Under the pieces are notes generated by a model that saw nothing but the letters and a program-made list of their open reading frames with translations, was not told the origin of the DNA and made no database searches. Positions 8,783 to 30,523 of a stretch of DNA of 64,000 bases are shown here, piece by piece. The stretch covers positions 161,039-225,038 of the forward strand of contig PLCB01000006.1 of the NCBI GenBank assembly GCA_003134695.1, read 5' to 3'. The number at the start of each line of letters is the position of its first letter. The stretch's first letter is position 1. The position numbers and the translations under genes were made by a program. This DNA comes from Candidatus Zemynaea palustris. GTDB taxonomy: Bacteria > Vulcanimicrobiota > Vulcanimicrobiia > Vulcanimicrobiales > Vulcanimicrobiaceae.

Positions 8783-9157
8783 CTACGGACCGATGACGAC
8801 CGTCGGACAGCCGACGACGATCTGGTCGCCGCTCGCGGTCGCGTCCCCGCTTCGAGCCGCCGGCTTACCACCGATCAGCACGGTTGGCGAGCCGACAACG
8901 ATGGGCACGTTGCTCGGAAGGTGGCCCGTGAGGATTTGCGTCCACGAGCTTGCTATATCGCCGGCGCGGGCAGCCGGGTGTCCGCAGATCAAAACCGTCG
9001 AAGCACCAGGCCCAAGGATCGTCCCTTTGCTCGTCGCGTCACCGACGCGCGCCGCCGGAGCGGCATCGGCCGGCGCGTGAGAAGCCGAGGCGCTCGCGGC
9101 GACGCAGACAAGTGCGAGGATCCGTGCCCCGGCGGCGATAGATCGAACCGGCCTCAA
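8783..9157 (-). CDS. PAAR-repeat tip protein with Sec signal peptide
   Basis: 124 residues. After a signal-like N-terminus (hydrophobic ILALVCVAASASA) comes a complete PAAR domain: AARVGDATSKG, GASTVLICGHPAARAGD, PIVVGSPTVLIGGKPAARSGD and VVGCPTVVIG. PAAR proteins cap VgrG spikes in type VI secretion and usually have no signal peptide. The start overlaps the upstream spike gene by four bases (ATGA). No sheath, baseplate or ATPase gene is in this window. Confidence 0.85.
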   Translation of the reverse strand: MRPVRSIAAGARILALVCVAASASASHAPADAAPAARVGDATSKGTILGPGASTVLICGHPAARAGDIASSWTQILTGHLPSNVPIVVGSPTVLIGGKPAARSGDATASGDQIVVGCPTVVIGP

Positions 9158-9498
9158 TTGATCGTCACGATGGCGCCCTTGATGACGGTCGTTCCCGAAC
9201 CTTCCAGCGAGGCCGAAGGAGCGCTGATCTGAGCTGACGCCTGACCGCTGATCTGAACGGTCGTCCCCTGAATGCTGATCTGGGTGCCTTTGATCGTGAC
9301 GTTCCCCGAGCTATCGACCGTGATGTACTTCAACAGATTCGTGAGTTGCGGATTTTGCACGGTGAGTTGCGGATTTTGCACGGAGGGTACGGTCGCGGCG
9401 ACGGCCGCGCGCTCGACGACGGCGCTGGCGAGTGCGCCGCTGAACGCGGCAACGGCGATGACGGCGACGATCGGGATCGTCCTAGTTGAAGGGCTCAT
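9154..9498 (-). CDS. Exported VgrG-tip-like beta-helix protein
   Basis: 114 residues with a signal peptide (VAVIAVAAFSGALASA). The second half is a three-sided beta-helix pattern of short valine/isoleucine strands (GNVTIKGTQISIQGTTVQIS) ending VIKGAIVTIN, which is how VgrG tips end where PAAR docks. The domains that normally precede this in VgrG are absent. A 21-bp tandem duplication gives VQNPQLT twice near the N-terminus. It is the first gene of the pair with the PAAR protein, so the two products probably form an exported spike tip. Confidence 0.7.
   Translation of the reverse strand: MSPSTRTIPIVAVIAVAAFSGALASAVVERAAVAATVPSVQNPQLTVQNPQLTNLLKYITVDSSGNVTIKGTQISIQGTTVQISGQASAQISAPSASLEGSGTTVIKGAIVTIN
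9341..9382. repeat. 21-bp tandem duplication
   Basis: Two exact 21-base units beginning GTGAGTTGCGGATTTTGCAC, in frame in the spike-tip gene. Confidence 0.9.
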
Positions 9499-10637: not shown

Positions 10638-11105
10638 GTGAAGAAGCATGCTTTAGCTACGCATCCGCGACGCCCGCATTCCACAGCGCGACCGTCCTCC
10701 GCGCAATCCATACTGCGCGCGACGCCGCGGAAGCGTTCCGGGGTGCGCCTACGCGAGCAATGCGTGGGGTGCACCGCGGCCGGAACCCTCGCACTCATCC
10801 CCGCCGCGTGTCCGTCTTACGGAAAGCCCGTGCAGATGCGCCGGCGCCGTTACTGCGAGGCGTTCGCCTCGCACCATCGCCAGAACCGCCTATGGGCGAA
10901 GGACCATCCTGAGCCGCGCGATCCTCGCGCCTGGTTCCTGCGCGAGGTCGCGCCGAAGCTCCACGCCTTCTCGCTCGGTGAGATCGCGAAAGCGACTGGC
11001 CTGTCCCTCGCGGCCTGTTCGCGCTTCCGCGCCGGGACGAAGGCTCCGCATCCGCGTCATTGGACAGCCTTCGTCGCGCTCGTGGAAGGAAGCGAGACGT
11101 CCTGA
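10638..11105 (+). pseudogene. Solo-Cas1 C-terminal zinc-ribbon/HTH remnant (copy A)
   Basis: Residues about 70-155 of this frame match the C-terminal extension of the solo-Cas1 fragment at 29576: HHRQNRLWAKDH, RAWFLREVAPKL, IAKATGLSLAACSRFRAGT and PHPRHW. The zinc ribbon before it is decayed: CPSYGKPVQMRRRRYCEAF has lost one Cys of each pair. There is no Cas1 catalytic domain. The stretch is open but probably not a functional gene. Confidence 0.65.
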
Positions 11106-12139: not shown

Positions 12140-12473
12140 TCTCAGTCAACGGCCCGCGAGGTGCTCGCGAAGCAAGCCCCGCGAGGGACCCGATCCGCGA
12201 GCGAGCGCGCAGGCGAACGCGCAACGCGGCGAAGCGAACGCCTCGCACCACCGCCGCAACCGGCAATGGGCGAAAGAGCATCCCGAGGAGCGTGATCGCG
12301 CCTGGTTCCTGCGCGAGGTCACGCCGAAGCTCGATGCGTTCTCGCTCAGCCAAATCGCGAAGGCGACTGGCCTGTCGCTCGCAGCCTGCTCGCGCTTCCG
12401 CGCTGGAACGCGGGTCCCACATCCGAGGCATTGGGTTGCCTTTATTGCGCTCGTCCAGGGAGACGCGTCTTAA
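12132..12473 (+). pseudogene. Solo-Cas1 HTH-domain remnant (copy B2)
   Basis: 113 residues, possible ATG at 12132. From about residue 25 it matches the C-terminal module: NAQRGEANASHHRRNRQWAK, RAWFLREVTPKL, IAKATGLSLAACSRFRAGTR, VPHPRHW. Zinc ribbon and Cas1 domain are missing. It could in principle be translated as a small DNA-binding protein, but there is no good ribosome site. Confidence 0.65.
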
Positions 12474-13965: not shown

Positions 13966-14150
13966 ACCGTGCTCCTGCTGACTACGTGGTGCTTCCCAAG
14001 TATAGCAGACCTGAGTACCGCCAACGTTGCCTGCGCGGAGGCCGAGTGCATTCGGTTAGTCGACGAAGACGCAAAGGGCTGGTCACGCGATCCACCTGAG
14101 GAAGCCAACACCAAATTGTGCGAGCGAAATCAAACACAGCACGAGACGTT

Positions 14151-14204
14151 ACCTCGGATGAATTTAGGTCCTGGCCGGAGATGCTTGCAAAGAAGAGCAA
14201 TATG
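14151..14204. repeat. Perfect 54-bp inverted repeat, left copy
   Basis: Begins ACCTCGGATGAATTTAGGTC and ends GAGCAATATG. The exact reverse complement is at 20346-20399, 6.1 kb away; flanking bases differ on both sides at both copies. The rest of 13966-14348 contains no gene that I can support. Confidence 0.95.
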
Positions 14205-14348
14205 CTAAGTCCGGCCGAATGGTCTCACGCGATGCTGAAACGGAGGGCCGACGATGGAACCACAGGCCCTACGTCTTGCGTTACGAAACAAGGCTATCTA
14301 CTCGGCCGCCCAAATCATTTTGCTTGCAACCAATAAGGAGACTCATCC

Positions 14349-14702
14349 GTGCAGTTACGATACACAGCTTTTGCCGCATTGGTCCTCGGCTTAGCCCTTG
14401 TCTCGAACCAGGTGTTCGCCGCTCGTCTTCTCCTCGTGCCTTTAGCACCGACCTCGGGCGCCGCGACCTGCGCCTCCGGGTTCACCGCCACGCCGACGAG
14501 CTGGGATTCGAAGAACGCGCCGGATTACGTGTGCAAAAGCAACACGCCCACGTGCGCGAACGGAACCGCCTTGAAGCTAAACGATGCAACGACGAAGGGA
14601 GGCTACCTCCGCTACACCTGCGGCGTTCCAACGCCGACGACTTCGGGGAATCCGGCTACGACCAAAACGGGGGTGGATAATTGGAATGTGCTCGGGCAAT
14701 AG
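14349..14702 (+). CDS. Small exported Cys-rich protein
   Basis: GTG start at 14349 after TAAGGAG. 117 residues, signal peptide ending VFAA, then five Cys in about 75 residues (CASGF, DYVCKSNTPTCANG, YTCGVP), suggesting a small disulfide-held domain. No family recognised. Confidence 0.6.
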   Translation: MQLRYTAFAALVLGLALVSNQVFAARLLLVPLAPTSGAATCASGFTATPTSWDSKNAPDYVCKSNTPTCANGTALKLNDATTKGGYLRYTCGVPTPTTSGNPATTKTGVDNWNVLGQ

Positions 14703-14789
14703 ACTTTAATAGGTCTCGTCAAGCGATGAAGCCACAAGTTCGCCTTCAAAACGAAGCCTGGCAATATTGAACATGCCCGTTTAATATAG

Positions 14790-15815
14790 ATGATACGCAA
14801 CGCACTGCTGACCATCATACTCCTCGCCGCTCCGGTTGTCGCCGCCGCGCAACCGCCGAATCCGATGGCGACGCCGACGCCGACTCCCGGGCCGAAGATC
14901 AACACCGATCTGAAGGTCGCTCCCGGAATACTCCTCGCGAGACCCAAGCCTGCAGCGTGCCCGGGGGCCAAGTCGACGGACATTCTTCTTTCGTCGTGCA
15001 AAGGCGCGCCGGGGACACACCTGACGCTGACGCTCGGAAACAACGTGACCCCGGCGAAGGTTCTGTTCAAGCAAAACGCCGGCAGCAAAATGACGAACTA
15101 TTCCGCAACGGTCGGGCGCAGCGCCGGAGCATATACGCTGACCGTACCGCCACCGCGTAACGTTCAGGTCGCGCGGGGAACCAAGCAGTGCGCCGCGCAC
15201 GTCGGCCTCTTCGGCGCGCTGACGTGCCCGGCGTTGATCAAGTCGGGCGACGTGCTACTCGTCTGGGACTGGCAGGCCGGAGCGGGACCCGCCGCGATCG
15301 GCGGGTTTCGGGTGTACCGTGTCACGGGCGGAACCAAACAGCTCGTCTACACGCGTACGGATAAGGACTCGATCACGCTGGTAGACCTTTCCGGGCCCGC
15401 GGCCGGATACGTCGGCGCGTGTTTCGCCGTGAGCGCGTACGCCGGCGCATACGAGTCCGCCCTCAGCGCCGCGCATTGCGTGACGAGGCAGGAGACCGTC
15501 GTTCTTGCATCACCGACGGTCAACGCCACGTCTCCGCCGGCACCGGCGCCGAAGCACGTCGTCATCCACGTGACCGGCGATTCCTTCCCCGCCAAGACGG
15601 TCGTCGCGGCCGGCGGCGACGTGACGTGGATCAATGACGACACGGACGAGCATTCCGTGTACGGTCCGGCCGGACAGTTCGTCGGCGACCTGTACGCGAG
15701 CGGCGGGAGCTTCACGTACACGTTCCGCGACATCGGCAAGAATTACACCGTCCCCTACCTGTGCCAGTACCACGCGGGCATGCACGGAACCATCGCCGTC
15801 GTCACGAACCACTGA
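14790..15815 (+). CDS. Exported SSC-domain / fibronectin-like / cupredoxin protein
   Basis: 341 residues. The first 110 residues, including the signal peptide MIRNALLTIILLAAPVVAAA, are closely similar to the start of the gene at 20248 (minus). The SSC domain breaks off after AYTLTVPP. Then come a fibronectin-III-like domain (VLLVWDWQAG, GFRVYRV, CFAVSAYAGAYES) and, from about residue 250, a plastocyanin-like domain with type-1 copper ligands: His in DEHSV and the C-x2-H-x2-M loop YLCQYHAGMHG. A blue-copper, periplasmic electron carrier or copper sink is likely. The truncated first domain suggests a recombinational fusion. Confidence 0.8.
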   Translation: MIRNALLTIILLAAPVVAAAQPPNPMATPTPTPGPKINTDLKVAPGILLARPKPAACPGAKSTDILLSSCKGAPGTHLTLTLGNNVTPAKVLFKQNAGSKMTNYSATVGRSAGAYTLTVPPPRNVQVARGTKQCAAHVGLFGALTCPALIKSGDVLLVWDWQAGAGPAAIGGFRVYRVTGGTKQLVYTRTDKDSITLVDLSGPAAGYVGACFAVSAYAGAYESALSAAHCVTRQETVVLASPTVNATSPPAPAPKHVVIHVTGDSFPAKTVVAAGGDVTWINDDTDEHSVYGPAGQFVGDLYASGGSFTYTFRDIGKNYTVPYLCQYHAGMHGTIAVVTNH

Positions 15816-16752: not shown

Positions 16753-17356
16753 CCGCGCCCGGAACTCCGCGCACCATCGCCGTCCAACCCAGCAAAGGCT
16801 CGAGTTCGCCAAAGCGAGGCCGCCCAGCCGGATAAGTTCCTCGCGGATGCCGCTTGGTCCATTCGAACCCTAGCACCGCAAGGTATTCGAAATTCTCGAA
16901 AGGGGCGTTGCTCCCGCCGATCACGCGCACCCGTTCGATGAGCGGTCGCAGTGTTCGATAAAATCCAAGAACGTTGGCCGAGCTGATGTCCAGCAACGAT
17001 CTTCGGTCGACCAAACCGTACTTGACGTACGTACCGAGCTGCTCGAAATAATCGCACAAGTGCAGCCAGGCATGCTCGGTTCGATCGGCTAGGCCCGCAT
17101 CGAGCGACTCGAGGTACGCCGGATCTTTAAGTCGTTCGGGCAATTCTTTGCGAACGAACCGGACCCACGCTTGCATTTCCGGCTTCTGCCAATCTTGCAG
17201 AATCGTAAGCAGCGCGTTGATCTGATTGCTGGCACGAAGATGTCGCAGTTGAACGACAGCGGCGATGGCCGTAGCACCGATGACTACGAACGTCGCGCCG
17301 GCGAAGGTCGTATTGATGGCTTCGAGCGTCATGCGAAACAGTTTGTCGGGACGCAT
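16745..17356 (-). CDS. Single-pass membrane protein, DUF4760-like
   Basis: 203 residues. One membrane segment at about 15-35 (TTFAGATFVVIGATAIAAVV), followed by a helical cytosolic domain (LLTILQDWQKPEMQ, CDYFEQLGTYVKYGLVDRRS, FYRTLRPLIERVR). That order of helix, W-x-x-P-E, FE-x-L-G and R-P-x-I-x-x-x-R resembles DUF4760-type proteins. Assignment is tentative. Confidence 0.55.
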   Translation of the reverse strand: MRPDKLFRMTLEAINTTFAGATFVVIGATAIAAVVQLRHLRASNQINALLTILQDWQKPEMQAWVRFVRKELPERLKDPAYLESLDAGLADRTEHAWLHLCDYFEQLGTYVKYGLVDRRSLLDISSANVLGFYRTLRPLIERVRVIGGSNAPFENFEYLAVLGFEWTKRHPRGTYPAGRPRFGELEPLLGWTAMVRGVPGADL

Positions 17357-17403
17357 CGAAGCGCCTAGTAGGTCGGTGGGCGCCGGCGGATGGCGAACTA
17401 AGG

Positions 17404-17616
17404 CCCCGCGCCTGGTTTCTACGCGACGTGACGCCGAAGCTCGACGCCTTCTCGCTCGGCGAGATCGCGAAGGCTACGGGCCTATCGCTCGCGGCCTGCT
17501 CGCGCTTCCGGGCCGGAATGCGCGTGCCGCATCCGCGCCATTGGGAGAGGTTCCTCGCGCTCGTCGAAGGGAGCGAGAAGTCGGCCGGAACGCCCGAAAA
17601 GCCTCTGATTCCTTAG
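17404..17616 (+). pseudogene. Solo-Cas1 HTH-domain remnant (copy C)
   Basis: Frame reads PRAWFLRDVTPKLDAF, EIAKATGLSLAACSRFRAGM, VPHPRHWERFLALVEGSEKS and a tail to TAG. It starts within the module with no upstream start or zinc ribbon. Confidence 0.7.
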
Positions 17617-17693
17617 TTGCGCCGCGACCGGGAACGTTCGCCAGCCATCGAACGTTCTTGCACCAGCGGTCCTCGCAGTTCTAAGGAGTCGTT

Positions 17694-18239
17694 ATGAACG
17701 TTTACCGAGTTCTTCGCCGCCTGCTCGTCGTCGCGGCGAGCATCTGTGCCTTCGTCTGGGTCAACCATAGCGTCGCCCAAGCGGCGATCACCATGAGTTG
17801 CAGCGCGCCAGCTGTCGGCGACGTCACCGCGCATGGAGCGACGATCAACCACGTACAGCTCCGGGATTTCACGGTGGAAAACCCGACGACGATCGGGTCG
17901 AGCAGCGGCGGCGCGGGCGCAGGCAAGGCCGTGTTGCAGCCGTTCACGATCACCAAGACCGTGGATACGGCCAGCCCTAGCTTCTTCAAGAACGCCGCCA
18001 ACTTGCACACGAACCTTGGAACCTGCACGATCGACTTCGATCCAGGCAGCCGGCCTAGGGATCAAGAGTACCTGACCTTTACGCTCAGCAACGTGGTGAT
18101 CTCAGGCTATAAGAGCGGTAGCACGACCGAGACGTTCACCTTGAACTCCACGAAGATCATCCAATCGAACCTATTCAAAGCCACGCCGACGCCGACGCCG
18201 ACGCCCGCGCCTACAGCCCCGGTTCTGAAACGGAAATAG
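17694..18239 (+). CDS. Hcp-family protein with Sec signal peptide
   Basis: AAGGAG before the ATG at 17694. 181 residues: signal peptide ending AQAA, then an Hcp-like beta-barrel: HVQLRDFTVENP, GAGKAVLQPFTITKTVDTAS, then EYLTFTLSNVVISGYKSGS and TETFTLNSTKI. These are the landmark segments of Hcp1 tube proteins. A Thr/Pro tail follows (ATPTPTPTPAPTAP). Hcp normally travels through the type VI tube without a signal peptide; export through Sec would be unusual. Compare the exported PAAR and spike-tip genes at 8783-9498. Confidence 0.75.
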   Translation: MNVYRVLRRLLVVAASICAFVWVNHSVAQAAITMSCSAPAVGDVTAHGATINHVQLRDFTVENPTTIGSSSGGAGAGKAVLQPFTITKTVDTASPSFFKNAANLHTNLGTCTIDFDPGSRPRDQEYLTFTLSNVVISGYKSGSTTETFTLNSTKIIQSNLFKATPTPTPTPAPTAPVLKRK

Positions 18240-18372: not shown

Positions 18373-18672
18373 GTGGCTGCCGAGCGTAGAACCTGCGAAG
18401 CTAGCGCACAGGCAAACGCGCAACGCGGCGAGGCCAACGCCTCGCACCATCGCCGCAACCGCCAATGGGCGAAGGAACATCCCGAACCGCGCGATCGCGC
18501 CTGGTTCCTGCGCGAGGTCACGCCGAAGCTCGACGCCTTCTCCCTCGGCGAGATCGCGAAAGCGACTGGCCTGTCCCTCGCAGCCTGCTCCCGCTTCCGC
18601 GCCGGAACGCGCGTGCCACATCCGCGTCATTGCCTCGCGTTCATCAGACTTGTCGAAGAGAAAGGCGTCTAA
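18373..18672 (+). pseudogene. Solo-Cas1 HTH-domain remnant (copy D)
   Basis: 99 residues; from about residue 10 it matches copy B2: NAQRGEANASHHRRNRQWAK, RAWFLREVTPKLDAF, IAKATGLSLAACSRFRAGTR, VPHPRHC. The usual Trp after PRH is Cys. Zinc ribbon and Cas1 domain are absent. Confidence 0.65.
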
Positions 18673-19246: not shown

Positions 19247-20248
19247 TTAGCTCGATACCTTTAGCGTCCATGTGCCGACCGTGGACGGCGTCATGCCATA
19301 GATGCGGATGAAGTAGGAGCCCGGCGGGAGCCCGGTCGTCCCTGTTCCGAGGCCGGCATACGATGACACGCCTGTTGCACCACCACCGGCACAGTTTCCA
19401 TCACCGCAAGCTACTGGGTGTCCAGCCGCCGACATGTAAACGTCAAGAAGGATTCCGCCACTCGACGAGATGTACACGCTAACGTACGGCGTCGCATAAT
19501 ATGAGGTCTTACAAGTCGCGTGTGAGGCCGGTACAACAAATTCCAGCCAGTCTGAGCTTCCGGCTGGGAACGTATTGCCGGTGATCGTTATGGACGCTCC
19601 GCAAGTCGCTGTAAAACCGGACATTGTAGGGGCGCCTGCGGTCTTACCGCAGTGGTCCGCAGTCAGTGGATTGGTCGTGCCACCGCAGGACATGACTTGC
19701 GGTGCGCTGGGTGGGCTGGTACCATACGACGTCGGTGCACAAATCACCGTAAACGTACCAAGGTTTTCGGTAACCGTCGGACCGTAAGGGCCGCCTTGAG
19801 GGTGAGATGTATAGTAGGAAACAACGAGGCTGAACGAAGGGCCCAGCCCTGGCTCCAACGGACAGAGTGGCGGCACGGTCAGCGTGTTGTATGCTCCGGC
19901 GCTGCGCCCAACCGTTGCGGGATCGTTCACTTTAAGATGGGCGGTGTTTTGCATGAATTGAACAGCCCACACCTCGATCCCGGTGTTTCCGGGCGTCGGC
20001 GTCAGCGTCAGTTGTGTCCCCGGCGCGCCGCTGCACGACGAAAGAAGAATGGCCATCGACTTGGCCCCCGGGCACGCTACCGGCTTTGGTGTTTTTCTGA
20101 GGAGTATTCCGGGAGCGACCTTCAGCTCGGTGTTGATCTTTGGCCCTGGAGTGGGCATCGGCGTCGCCATCGGATTCGGCGGTTCCGCGGCGGCGACAAC
20201 CGGAGCGGCGAGGAGTATGATGGTCAGCAGGGCTGCGTTGCGTATCAT
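19247..20248 (-). CDS. Exported SSC-domain protein with prepeptidase-like C-terminal domain
   Basis: 333 residues from the ATG at 20248. The first 110 residues are the close paralogue of the gene at 14790. Here the SSC domain is complete, running from CPGAKSMAILLSSCSGAPGT to LGTFTVICAPT. After a linker comes a second domain with CGASITITGNTFPAG and the end LPPGSYFIRIYGMTPSTVGT, then WTLKVSS, which resembles bacterial pre-peptidase C-terminal (PPC) beta domains. Several Cys pairs. Surface or periplasmic role, partner unknown. Confidence 0.7.
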   Translation of the reverse strand: MIRNAALLTIILLAAPVVAAAEPPNPMATPMPTPGPKINTELKVAPGILLRKTPKPVACPGAKSMAILLSSCSGAPGTQLTLTPTPGNTGIEVWAVQFMQNTAHLKVNDPATVGRSAGAYNTLTVPPLCPLEPGLGPSFSLVVSYYTSHPQGGPYGPTVTENLGTFTVICAPTSYGTSPPSAPQVMSCGGTTNPLTADHCGKTAGAPTMSGFTATCGASITITGNTFPAGSSDWLEFVVPASHATCKTSYYATPYVSVYISSSGGILLDVYMSAAGHPVACGDGNCAGGGATGVSSYAGLGTGTTGLPPGSYFIRIYGMTPSTVGTWTLKVSS

Positions 20249-20345
20249 CGATGTTAATCTCCATTCCCCAGTTGGTCGATCCTTTAGGCGACGGCTCACG
20301 GTGCGGGTGGCGATCGGCGCCGGGCGATCATGCGATTTCTCCACG

Positions 20346-20399
20346 CATATTGCTCTTCTTTGCAAGCATCTCCGGCCAGGACCTAAATTCATCCGAGGT
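20346..20399. repeat. Perfect 54-bp inverted repeat, right copy
   Basis: Exact reverse complement of 14151-14204. It lies about 100 bases upstream of the paralogue at 20248, whereas the left copy is about 585 bases upstream of the paralogue at 14790. Confidence 0.95.
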
Positions 20400-20439
20400 C
20401 ACCCTTAGAAGCGAGGACCTGCAGCGAAAGTGCAGCGCC

Positions 20440-25690: not shown

Positions 25691-25782
25691 AAAAAGTCGG
25701 GGCGTGTTGACGGCGTCTCGCTTCCTTCGACGAGACCGAGGAACGCTGTGCTCCACCGAATCGCGCACCGGGCCCATCTCAT
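25657..25782 (-). pseudogene. Solo-Cas1 tail remnant (copy G)
   Basis: The minus frame reads AIRWSTAFLGLVEGSETPST then a short tail to TGA at 25657. RW-x-x-AFL-x-LVEGSE is the end of the same HTH module as in copies A and C. Weak on its own, supported by the seven other copies. Confidence 0.45.
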
Positions 25783-26987
25783 TTGATGAACTGTAGGAAT
25801 TGCGCGGCGAGTGCGGATAGAACGACGACGATCCACGGAGGCGTCTTCCATACCGCGAGCAGCAGGAAAGCGAGAAATGCGAGCGCCGCGTCGGCAGGTC
25901 CACGAATTGCACTCACCCATACAGGTTGATATAGCGCAGCCATCAGCAAGCCGACGACGGCAGCGTTCACGCCCTGCAGCGCTGCGATCAGCTTAGGATT
26001 GGCGATGAAATCATTCCAGAATGGAAGGATCGCTCCGATGAGCAGAAACGACGGCAGGTAGATCGCTACGAGCGCAAGGGCCGCTCCGCCCACGCCGCTC
26101 ACCGGACCATGCATCGCCGCGCCGACATAAGCGGCGAACGTGAAGAGCGGCCCCGGCACCGCTTGCGCCGCTCCATAGCCTGCGAGAAACGCATCTGAGC
26201 CGATCCAGCCCTGCGGCACGACGCGCGCTTGGAGCAACGGCAGCACGACGTGTCCGCCACCGAAGACGAGCGCGCCAGATTCATAGAACGCACCGAACAC
26301 GTTGAGCGGACCGTAGGACGCGAATCGTTGTGCGATCGGGAATCCGACGAGCAATCCAAGAAACGCGACGGCGCTAAGGATGGCGGAAACGCGGTTTCCA
26401 GCAGCAGGAATCGGCTGTGTCTTACTCTCCGGTGGCTCAATGAAGAAGCGTCCGTAAACTGCTCCGAGTATGATAATCGAGAGTTGCACGAAGCCGCTAA
26501 CCGGAAGCAAGAGAATTACCGCCGCAGCGACAAACGCGACCGTCCTGCGCGGAACGTCCGGACAGAGTGAACGATACATGTTGGAGACGGCGAGAGCCAC
26601 GACGGCGACCGCAGCGACGAGCAATCCATGAATCCAGGGCGCTTCGGCCACGCCGGGGATGCGTGCGATGCCTAACGCGAACGCAGTCAGTGCAATTGCC
26701 GAGGGAAGCGTGAACGCGATCCAGGCCAACGCGGCGCCTAACACACCGCCGCGAATCAAGCCGATGATGATACCGACTTGGCTGCTCGCGGGACCGGGAA
26801 GAAACTGACAGAGCGCGACGATCTGCGCGAACGTATCCTCATCGAGCCACTTGCGACGGCGCACGAACTCGGCGTTGAAGTAGCCGAGATGTGCGATCGG
26901 GCCACCGAACGAAGTTACGCCCAGGCGCAGGAATGATGCAAACACTTCCCCTGCACCGGAAAGGTTGCGCGGCCCGGAAGGTTCCAT
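25779..26987 (-). CDS. chrA: ChrA-type chromate transporter
   Basis: Start ATG at 26987 after GGGAG; 402 residues. Two homologous halves, each opening with the family signature: FLRLGVTSFGGPIAHLGYF and CQFLPGPASSQVGIIIG in the first, VFGGGHVVLPLLQARVV and YGAAQAVPGPLFTFAAYVG in the second. About ten to twelve membrane helices. Exports or imports chromate-like oxyanions; family members also occur with unknown substrates. Third gene after the cupredoxin and barrel genes on the same strand. Confidence 0.92.
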   Translation of the reverse strand: MEPSGPRNLSGAGEVFASFLRLGVTSFGGPIAHLGYFNAEFVRRRKWLDEDTFAQIVALCQFLPGPASSQVGIIIGLIRGGVLGAALAWIAFTLPSAIALTAFALGIARIPGVAEAPWIHGLLVAAVAVVALAVSNMYRSLCPDVPRRTVAFVAAAVILLLPVSGFVQLSIIILGAVYGRFFIEPPESKTQPIPAAGNRVSAILSAVAFLGLLVGFPIAQRFASYGPLNVFGAFYESGALVFGGGHVVLPLLQARVVPQGWIGSDAFLAGYGAAQAVPGPLFTFAAYVGAAMHGPVSGVGGAALALVAIYLPSFLLIGAILPFWNDFIANPKLIAALQGVNAAVVGLLMAALYQPVWVSAIRGPADAALAFLAFLLLAVWKTPPWIVVVLSALAAQFLQFIK

Positions 26988-27025
26988 GGCCGGCTCCCTT
27001 CGGCCATCTTGCTTACATTGCTCTA

Positions 27026-27805
27026 TTAAGGTTTTGAAACTGCGGGCTTCGGGGCTTCGGGCTTTTCTGCCGGACCCCACGTCCAGTAGAGACCGACGTA
27101 GCCGACAGCGTGCGATTCACCTGAGATCGTGTGCCCAACGTCGAAGAGCACGTTGAACGAATCCGTCGGCTTCAGGTAGCCACCGACCGTATAGAACGTC
27201 GCATGCTGCCCGCCGACCGCTGATGGGCCTTGCGTAAACATCTCGCCGCCGAGTGTGAGCGCGCGGCCGATATCGCGTTGCACGAGCCAGCCTGCGAAGC
27301 CGTAGTTCTGCGCGCCGGGCGCGGTGTTCACCGCATATCCGCCGCCTCCGTACGTGGTCCACGACCCGTAGCTCTTTTGAATCCACAGCGGGAACTTGTA
27401 CCATGTGCGGCCGTTCCCGAGACTTTCATTGGCGTTGCCCGTCGCCACTTCGGCCATCGGAAAGACGCCGATCTGCGGCCTCCCCGCGGTCTCTTGCACG
27501 AACCGGAATTTCACGCCGAGTTCAGTGTCCCCGAGTCCCGACGTCTTCGGTCCGCCGGCCGGCGAGTTCCACTGATAGGGGATGACGATATGAAGGTGCA
27601 CGTTCGGCGCAGGTCCGCAGTTGTATTCGATCGCCGGACCGACGCTGCTCGTCGTCGCTGACGCTTTGTCCCACGTCGAGAAGACATAGAACTCGCAGTG
27701 CTTGTAGTCGATGGGAGCGGGATCATCCGTGAGAAACGGAGGACCTGCCTTGGCGGCACTCATCGACAAGACCAGAAAGATTGCGACCAGCAGTGATTTT
27801 CTCAT
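27026..27805 (-). CDS. Outer-membrane beta-barrel transporter-like protein
   Basis: 259 residues, signal peptide MRKSLLVAIFLVLSMSAAKA, mature start GPPFLTDDPAPIDYKHCEFY, characteristic of the same barrel group as the gene at 6207. Strands rich in Gly, Tyr and Trp follow. 38 bases upstream of chrA. Possibly the outer-membrane gate for this set. Confidence 0.75.
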   Translation of the reverse strand: MRKSLLVAIFLVLSMSAAKAGPPFLTDDPAPIDYKHCEFYVFSTWDKASATTSSVGPAIEYNCGPAPNVHLHIVIPYQWNSPAGGPKTSGLGDTELGVKFRFVQETAGRPQIGVFPMAEVATGNANESLGNGRTWYKFPLWIQKSYGSWTTYGGGGYAVNTAPGAQNYGFAGWLVQRDIGRALTLGGEMFTQGPSAVGGQHATFYTVGGYLKPTDSFNVLFDVGHTISGESHAVGYVGLYWTWGPAEKPEAPKPAVSKP

Positions 27806-28608: not shown

Positions 28609-28862
28609 TTAAGACGCGACGCCTTCGACGAGCGCGAGGAACGCAGCCCAGTGACGCGGATGCGGGACGCGCGTGCCGGCGCGGAACCGCGAACAGGCCG
28701 CGAGGGAGAGGCCCGTCGCCTTGGCGATCTCGCCCAGCGGGAATGCGTCGAGCTTCGGCGTTACCTCGCGCAGGAACCAGGCATCATTGCGCGGCTCGGG
28801 ATGCTCTCTCGCCCATTGCCGGTTCCGGCGATGGTGCGAGGCGACGTCTTGCCTAAGCCAAC
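28609..28862 (-). pseudogene. Solo-Cas1 HTH-domain remnant (copy E)
   Basis: The minus frame reads VASHHRRNRQWAREHPEP, DAWFLREVTPKLDAFPL, IAKATGLSLAACSRFRAGTR and VPHPRHWAAFLALVEG to a TAA at 28609. A stop lies a few codons upstream and there is no start codon. Opposite strand to copies A-D. Confidence 0.7.
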
Positions 28863-29597: not shown

Positions 29598-30523
29598 AAG
29601 GGCTCGATCCGACGCTCGGCGTCCTTCATGCGGACCAGCGCAACCGCGATTCGTTCGCGCTCGATGCCATGGAGCCGATCCGCCCGGACGTGGATGCGTT
29701 CATCCTCGATCTGTTGGAAGATCGCGTGTTCACCTCGCGGGATTTCGCCGAGCTTCCGAACGGGGTTTGCCGCTTATGCAGCCCGGTGACCCACGACCTC
29801 GCACTGACGCTGCCGCATTGGCGAATGCTCATGCAGCCGATCGCCGCGCGCCTCGCACAGGCATTCCGCGAATCGCGCCTCGAACAGCGCGCTGCGCCTC
29901 GCATTCTTGGTGCAGACCCTGTGCATTCGCGTCGCATTCGCCCTGTTGCGAGGCATTCGCCGCTCGTTGCAACGCCTCGCAAGGCCTCGCAGCCCCGGCC
30001 GTATGCAAGCAAAGAATGGAGTGCACCGCGGCCTGAAGGCCTCTCACTCAATCCAATTGCGTGCGCATCGTGCGGCGAGCCAGTCCTCAAACGCAGGCGC
30101 CGGCACTGCGAGGAGTGCATGCCGGAAGTGAAGCGCGCTCATGGCATTCGTGCAATTTCCGCCGCTCGCAAAGCGCTCGCGGCGCAAAGTCTCGCAGGCA
30201 AGGACCCTCGCGCGAATCGCGAGGCCGGGCGCAAGCGCGGCGCGGCTAATGCCGAGCACCACAGGCGGAACCGCGAATGGGCACGCGACCACGACCAGAG
30301 CGCTGTGCGCGATCGCGCCTGGTTTCTGCGCGAGGTTACCCCAAGGCTCGACGTCTTCTCGCTCGTTGAAATCGCAAAAGCGACGGGGCTATCTCTCGCA
30401 GCCTGCTCTCGCTTCCGAGTCAGCTCGCGCGTTCCGCACCCCCGACACTGGCCAGCCTTCTGCGCACTTGTGAGCGTAGCGATTGAGGGACCGGAGTCGC
30501 GCAGCCTTACCTCGCCCCTATAA
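29576..30523 (+). pseudogene. cas1: Solo-Cas1 with zinc ribbon and HTH, N-terminally truncated (copy F)
   Basis: 315 residues from a TTG; no good ribosome site. Residues 1-95 are the C-terminal part of a Cas1 integrase: LALLAQGLDPTLGVLHADQR, SFALDAMEPIRPDVDAFILD and GVCRLCSPVTHDLALTLPHW. The catalytic His18 and Asp30 are kept, but the Glu-bearing N-terminal part is missing. After a variable linker comes a zinc ribbon, CASCGEPV at 163 and HCEEC at about 177, and then the HTH module RAWFLREVTPRLDVF, IAKATGLSLAACSRFR. Cas1 with this tail is a stand-alone type not tied to CRISPR arrays; no array or cas2 is here. Confidence 0.75.

What the first reader, a model, noticed from the sequence alone, without database searches (positions are those of the whole stretch)
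17694..18239. Hcp-like tube protein with Sec signal peptide
GAGKAVLQPFTITKTVDTAS and TFTLSNVVISGYKSGS are Hcp signatures, preceded by a classical signal peptide and followed by a Thr/Pro tail. With the exported spike tip and PAAR 8 kb away, three needle parts are all Sec-tagged in one accessory region. Together they may represent an unrecognised exported tube-spike assembly.
Basis: partly seen in the sequence, partly recalled or inferred. Interest (0 to 1): 0.75.

Follow-up and report, generated by a model that had tools for sequence, protein, structure and literature searches.

The report
Exported Hcp-like protein without T6SS
A protein with the fold of the inner tube of a bacterial injection machine carries an export tag in a genome where no sheath of that machine was found, so it is probably a reused part working outside the cell's interior rather than part of a hidden needle.

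Summary
ORF 17694-18239(+) is an Hcp-family protein (PF05638, E 4.9e-15; the predicted fold matches solved Hcps) with an N-terminal signal peptide, and its start has a good ribosome site. The interpretation, an exported tube-spike machine, is mostly not supported. The T6SS sheath protein VipB is absent from this genome and from all 149 genomes of its phylum searched. PF05638 proteins occur in 8 of 149 (13 places); 11 of the 13 places carry a signal peptide. PAAR exceeds its cut-off in only 2 of 149 genomes, and only the window's sits in an Hcp-bearing genome. The exported spike-tip gene has one good homologue elsewhere, in G129, which also has four exported Hcps, on other contigs and without PAAR. 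In a second group, class Thermoleophilia, Hcp (15 of 199 genomes) and PAAR (3 of 199) never coincide. Exported Hcps do not form one clade (p-AU 0.0027): the window protein groups, with 100/96 support, with signal-less Hcps of VipB-bearing genomes. Best reading: tube proteins converted more than once into Sec-exported, probably ring-forming, extracytoplasmic proteins in bacteria without a T6SS. The exact function is inferred only.

The parts
17694..18239 (+). Exported Hcp-family protein, 181 aa
   Evidence: PF05638 E 4.9e-15; fold search
17683..17688 (+). Shine-Dalgarno AAGGAG, 5 nt before the ATG
   Evidence: read directly; scored
17694..17783 (+). Predicted signal peptide, residues 1-30 (AxA ends at residue 30)
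   Evidence: heuristic score; no SignalP
17853..18158 (+). Hcp domain, residues 54-155
17799..17801 (+). Cys36, conserved in the two nearest exported Hcps
   Evidence: alignment A3
18024..18026 (+). Cys111, conserved in the same two; with Cys36 the only cysteines after the signal peptide
   Evidence: alignment A3; positions
18183..18221 (+). Thr/Pro-rich tail, residues 164-176
   Evidence: read directly
9154..9498 (-). Exported spike-tip-like protein, 114 aa; considered, not shown to act with the Hcp
   Evidence: PDB 7b5h All3320 E 0.0015; PF19267 E 0.022, below cut-off
8783..9157 (-). Exported PAAR protein, 124 aa; its TTG start overlaps the spike gene's TGA stop (TTGA); considered, not shown to act with the Hcp
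   Evidence: PF05488 E 2.6e-16; sequence

Best explanation
The gene makes an Hcp-fold protein that is exported by Sec and works outside the cytoplasm, independently of any contractile machine. Shown: the family, the fold match, the signal peptide by sequence features, no VipB sheath in this genome or its phylum sample, and several separate placements of exported Hcps on the tree. Inferred: signal peptidase cuts after Ala30; the mature barrel is stabilised by a Cys36-Cys111 disulphide; like other Hcps it assembles into hexameric rings, here in the periplasm or on the surface, with the Thr/Pro tail as a flexible linker; the ring serves as a small scaffold or binding chamber, as T6SS Hcp does for its cargo (recalled), rather than as a conduit for injection.
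For: PF05638 and fold. VipB 0 of 149 phylum genomes; phage sheath PF04984 absent in the own genome. 11 of 13 phylum PF05638 places have a signal peptide, each with a purine-rich SD-like motif of at least 4 nt before that start. Genomes with an exported Hcp have no VipB: 0 of 12, while the four cross-phylum relatives without a signal peptide (L017, L018, L020, L021) all sit in VipB-bearing genomes. Exported Hcps are not one clade, p-AU 0.0027; the window protein falls in a 100/96 set with L018 and L021. Cys36 and Cys111 are conserved in A3. A signal/anchor plus collagen-like plus Hcp protein occurs in an actinobacterial genome without VipB (L019/L044).
Against: Export rests on home-made scoring, not SignalP or an experiment. 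The structure model has low confidence. No hexamer was modelled. Signal-less Hcps in genomes without VipB also exist: 9 of 14 genomes carrying only signal-less Hcps lacked it, so export is not the only fate of an Hcp without a T6SS. The spike tip occurs only in genomes with exported Hcp (2 of 2), which leaves some room for a joint function. Most of these genomes are incomplete assemblies. VgrG, TssB, TssJLM and TssK were not searched.
Confidence: 0.62

Rival explanations
1. One reading: exported Hcp, spike tip and PAAR assemble outside the membrane into a sheathless tube-spike needle.
For: All three score as exported; they lie within 9.5 kb; spike and PAAR overlap by start-stop; both genomes with a good spike homologue also have exported Hcps (p 0.0025).
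Against: PAAR is missing from the other Hcp genomes; no overlap in Thermoleophilia; G129's spike stands alone among metabolic genes; the Hcp is on the other strand with about a dozen called genes between; the spike protein is only 114 aa, too short to hold the gp27-like part that joins VgrG to the tube (recalled); exported genes are common in this region.
Confidence: 0.07
2. A degenerating remnant of a lost T6SS or other contractile system.
For: The sheath is absent; rare, patchy distribution, 8 of 149 genomes; the window gene lies in a repeat-rich region.
Against: Frames are open, with signal peptides and SD-like sites kept in 11 copies; an ortholog beside an ammonium-transporter-like gene is kept in two species of the genus; conserved cysteines. 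A remnant would not be expected to gain signal peptides repeatedly.
Confidence: 0.12
3. Secreted effector or toxin-like protein on an Hcp scaffold, acting on neighbouring cells.
For: It is exported and lies in a variable region rich in exported genes.
Against: Only the Hcp domain plus a short Thr/Pro tail is present; no toxin domain and no PADLOC match; no immunity-like partner was recognised, though none was searched for systematically.
Confidence: 0.1

Closest known systems
T6SS tube protein Hcp/TssD (PF05638, TIGR03344; structures 1y12, 8yun, 4tv4)
   Same: Family, predicted fold, SGGAGAGKA and TVDTASP motifs
   Different: N-terminal signal peptide, conserved cysteine pair, Thr/Pro tail, below the TIGR03344 cut-off, no VipB in the genome
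Signal-less Hcps of Singulisphaera (L018) and Rhodospirillales (L021) in VipB-bearing genomes
   Same: Same 100/96 branch as the window protein
   Different: They start directly at the first strand, with no signal peptide
Exported or anchored Hcp-domain proteins of Thermoleophilia (L044, L045, L054, L055, L058)
   Same: Hcp domain behind a signal or anchor; no VipB in those genomes
   Different: L044, L045 and L055 carry collagen-like repeats; they lie on other branches
eCIS tube and spike (Anabaena All3320 in 7b5h; SalCis10 in 9rce)
   Same: Tube fold and spike-tip/PAAR resemblance
   Different: No phage-type sheath in the own genome; here the parts are exported and scattered

Membership tests
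Hcp family (PF05638) | Profile match over the curated cut-off | tested here: met
   56.4 bits against 23.5
Hcp family (PF05638) | Hcp/tail-tube fold | tested here: met
   Top Foldseek matches are Hcps; VIA Z up to 13.5; model pLDDT only 60.6
TssD of a T6SS (TIGR03344) | Match over the NCBIfam cut-off | tested here: not met
   35.4 bits against 58.9
TssD of a T6SS (TIGR03344) | VipB/TssC sheath in the same genome | tested here: not met
   0 of 149 phylum genomes, own included; own assembly 96.66% complete
TssD of a T6SS (TIGR03344) | Synthesised without a signal peptide | tested here: not met
   Signal peptide by heuristic score, with an SD at that start
TssD of a T6SS (TIGR03344) | VgrG, baseplate and membrane complex genes | not tested
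TssD of a T6SS (TIGR03344) | Hexameric ring | not testable with these tools
   No multimer modelling offered
Extracellular contractile injection system | Phage-type sheath (PF04984) | tested here: not met
   0 in the own genome
   All three together only in G000 among 149; spike plus Hcp in 2 genomes

The most novel reading that the evidence does not exclude
Hcp, spike tip and PAAR have been moved together to the outside of the cytoplasm and form a sheathless, non-contractile needle or capped pore built from separately exported parts.
Probability: 0.07. Interest if true: 0.85.

Novelty: new variant of a known kind. Interest (0 to 1): 0.45.

Why it matters
Hcp is used as a marker of the T6SS. 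Here it is an exported protein in genomes without the VipB sheath, in a little-studied phylum and in an actinobacterial class, with more than one apparent origin. Finding Hcp alone should therefore not be read as a T6SS, and a ring-forming injection part may have been reused outside the cell, which can be tested on one small protein.

Tried and rejected
A hidden T6SS or eCIS: VipB in 60 relatives and then 149 phylum genomes and PF04984 in the own genome, all none.

A phage or plasmid origin: no relative of the Hcp in viral contigs or plasmids, none of the spike in viral contigs. PHROGs gave only unknown families for the Hcp and spike, and a PAAR family for the PAAR gene.

A wrong start that would remove the signal peptide: rejected, because AAGGAG lies 5 nt before the first ATG and the other exported copies show the same pattern.

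The G145 spike hit (E 1.6e-4) was judged spurious on reading its frame. The two-gene count (2 of 2) drops it; one search also gives the count with it. G130's PAAR has no convincing signal peptide before the domain and no Hcp in its genome. L013 and L057 (fragments) and L060 (weakest whole domain) were left out of the tree; L060 was scored. L008 (PAAR, one stop inside) is below the cut-off.

Literature: search listings only (titles, starts of abstracts, term counts). No title or abstract start reported a signal-peptide Hcp. No paper was opened, and subscription journals are mostly missing, so this is not a claim that none exists.

Full report
What is there. The ORF at 17694-18239(+) codes for 181 aa. 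Residues 54-155 match PF05638 at E 4.9e-15; TIGR03344 matches below its cut-off; the best solved relatives by sequence are Hcps. A model of the mature protein made from seven sequences has modest confidence (mean pLDDT 60.6, pTM 0.56), but the top Foldseek matches are Hcps, and the top VIA rows are Hcps with phage and eCIS tube proteins below them. The N-terminus has a charged start, a hydrophobic core and an AxA at residue 30, with AAGGAG 5 nt before the ATG. After the signal peptide there are exactly two cysteines, C36 and C111, both conserved in the two nearest exported relatives.

Relatives in the phylum. PF05638 is found in 5 of 60 relatives and 8 of 149 phylum genomes, in 13 places. Reading and scoring the frames, 11 of 13 have a signal peptide at a start with an SD-like motif. 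The exceptions are L010, which is signal-less, and L013, a fragment. L009 looks Tat-like by eye. The name ammonium transporter is my recognition, not from a family search. Neighbours of the other exported copies share no common partner and show no PAAR or spike gene, as far as reading the starts of the called frames shows.

Machine parts. VipB is absent from 60 relatives and from 149 phylum genomes, while the control E. coli genome rings. PF04984 is absent in the own genome. PAAR exceeds its cut-off only in G000 and G130, with a third weak hit. The spike protein matches in G000, G129 (43% identity, E 2.1e-11, with a signal or anchor) and weakly in G145. In G129 the spike stands between metabolic genes with no PAAR beside it, and its four Hcps are on other contigs. 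Both genomes with a good spike homologue have exported Hcps (hypergeometric p 0.0025, or 0.0074 with the weak third hit).

Beyond the phylum. One scan of genome contigs gave six loci. Four have no signal peptide (scores 0.32-0.65), and all four lie in VipB-bearing genomes. The other two, L016 and the actinobacterial L019, are exported or anchored and lie in genomes without VipB. In 199 genomes of L019's class (Thermoleophilia is my recalled placing of Solirubrobacteraceae), PF05638 occurs in 15, in 19 places. L044, L045, L054, L055 and L058 have a signal or anchor; for L044, L045 and L055 it may be a membrane anchor rather than a cleaved signal. PAAR occurs in 3 of 199, none of them an Hcp genome. 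VipB was sought in 14 of the 15 (the fifteenth, G152) and found only in G256, whose Hcp has no signal. Counting all genomes tested, those with an exported Hcp have VipB in 0 of 12; those with only signal-less Hcps in 5 of 14 (G333, whose place is a broken frame, left out; G149 taken to be the same as G001 and counted once). Signal-less Hcps without VipB are thus also common in this class.

Tree. In a tree of 33 Hcp domains (163 columns) the window protein sits in a 100/96 set of six with L001, L002, L004 and the signal-less L018 and L021. Holding all 16 exported rows together is rejected (p-AU 0.00273). Long branches and many open forks advise caution. Gain of a signal peptide more than once is the simplest reading; repeated loss is not excluded.

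Setting. By a rough gene caller and the same score, 8 of 17 genes called at 8.7-20.5 kb look exported, against 9 of 47 elsewhere in the window (p 0.051). The caller missed the gene at 19247-20392, which looks exported by eye, so the regional figure is a little low. The region holds several copies of a short repeat with a helix-turn-helix-like frame, and two inverted copies of an exported gene on either side of the Hcp. Being near PAAR and being exported are therefore both weak evidence of a joint function.

Verdict. The Hcp is best read as an exported Hcp-fold protein separated from any contractile machine, one of several such conversions. Ring formation, the disulphide and a scaffold or binding role are inferred. 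The needle reading stays possible at about 7%.

Noticed in passing
window 8783-9498: Two-gene unit: an exported spike-tip-like protein and an exported PAAR protein, joined by a TTGA start-stop overlap. Unusual in its own right; an exported spike homologue exists in G129.
   Followed up: partly
window 10829-11074, 12200-12445, 17310-17555, 18399-18644, 28609-28843, 30307-30471: Copies of a repeat with a short helix-turn-helix-like reading frame scattered among the accessory genes, two of them flanking the Hcp gene (weak HTH hits).
   Followed up: partly
window 14148-15033 and 19999-20402: Inverted, 91-98% identical stretches belonging to paralogous exported genes (14790-15815 + and 19247-20392 -) on either side of the Hcp; the segment between might invert.
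   Followed up: no
L019 5320-6312 (also L044, L045, L055): Actinobacterial proteins joining a signal or anchor, collagen-like GPQGP repeats, and an Hcp domain.
   Followed up: partly
G256:C156 (L052, L066): A genome bin of the same actinobacterial class with VipB about 0.5 kb from an Hcp gene: a T6SS in this class or a contaminating contig.
   Followed up: no
window 25779-27080: Chromate efflux transporter (TIGR00937, E 4.8e-93).
   Followed up: no
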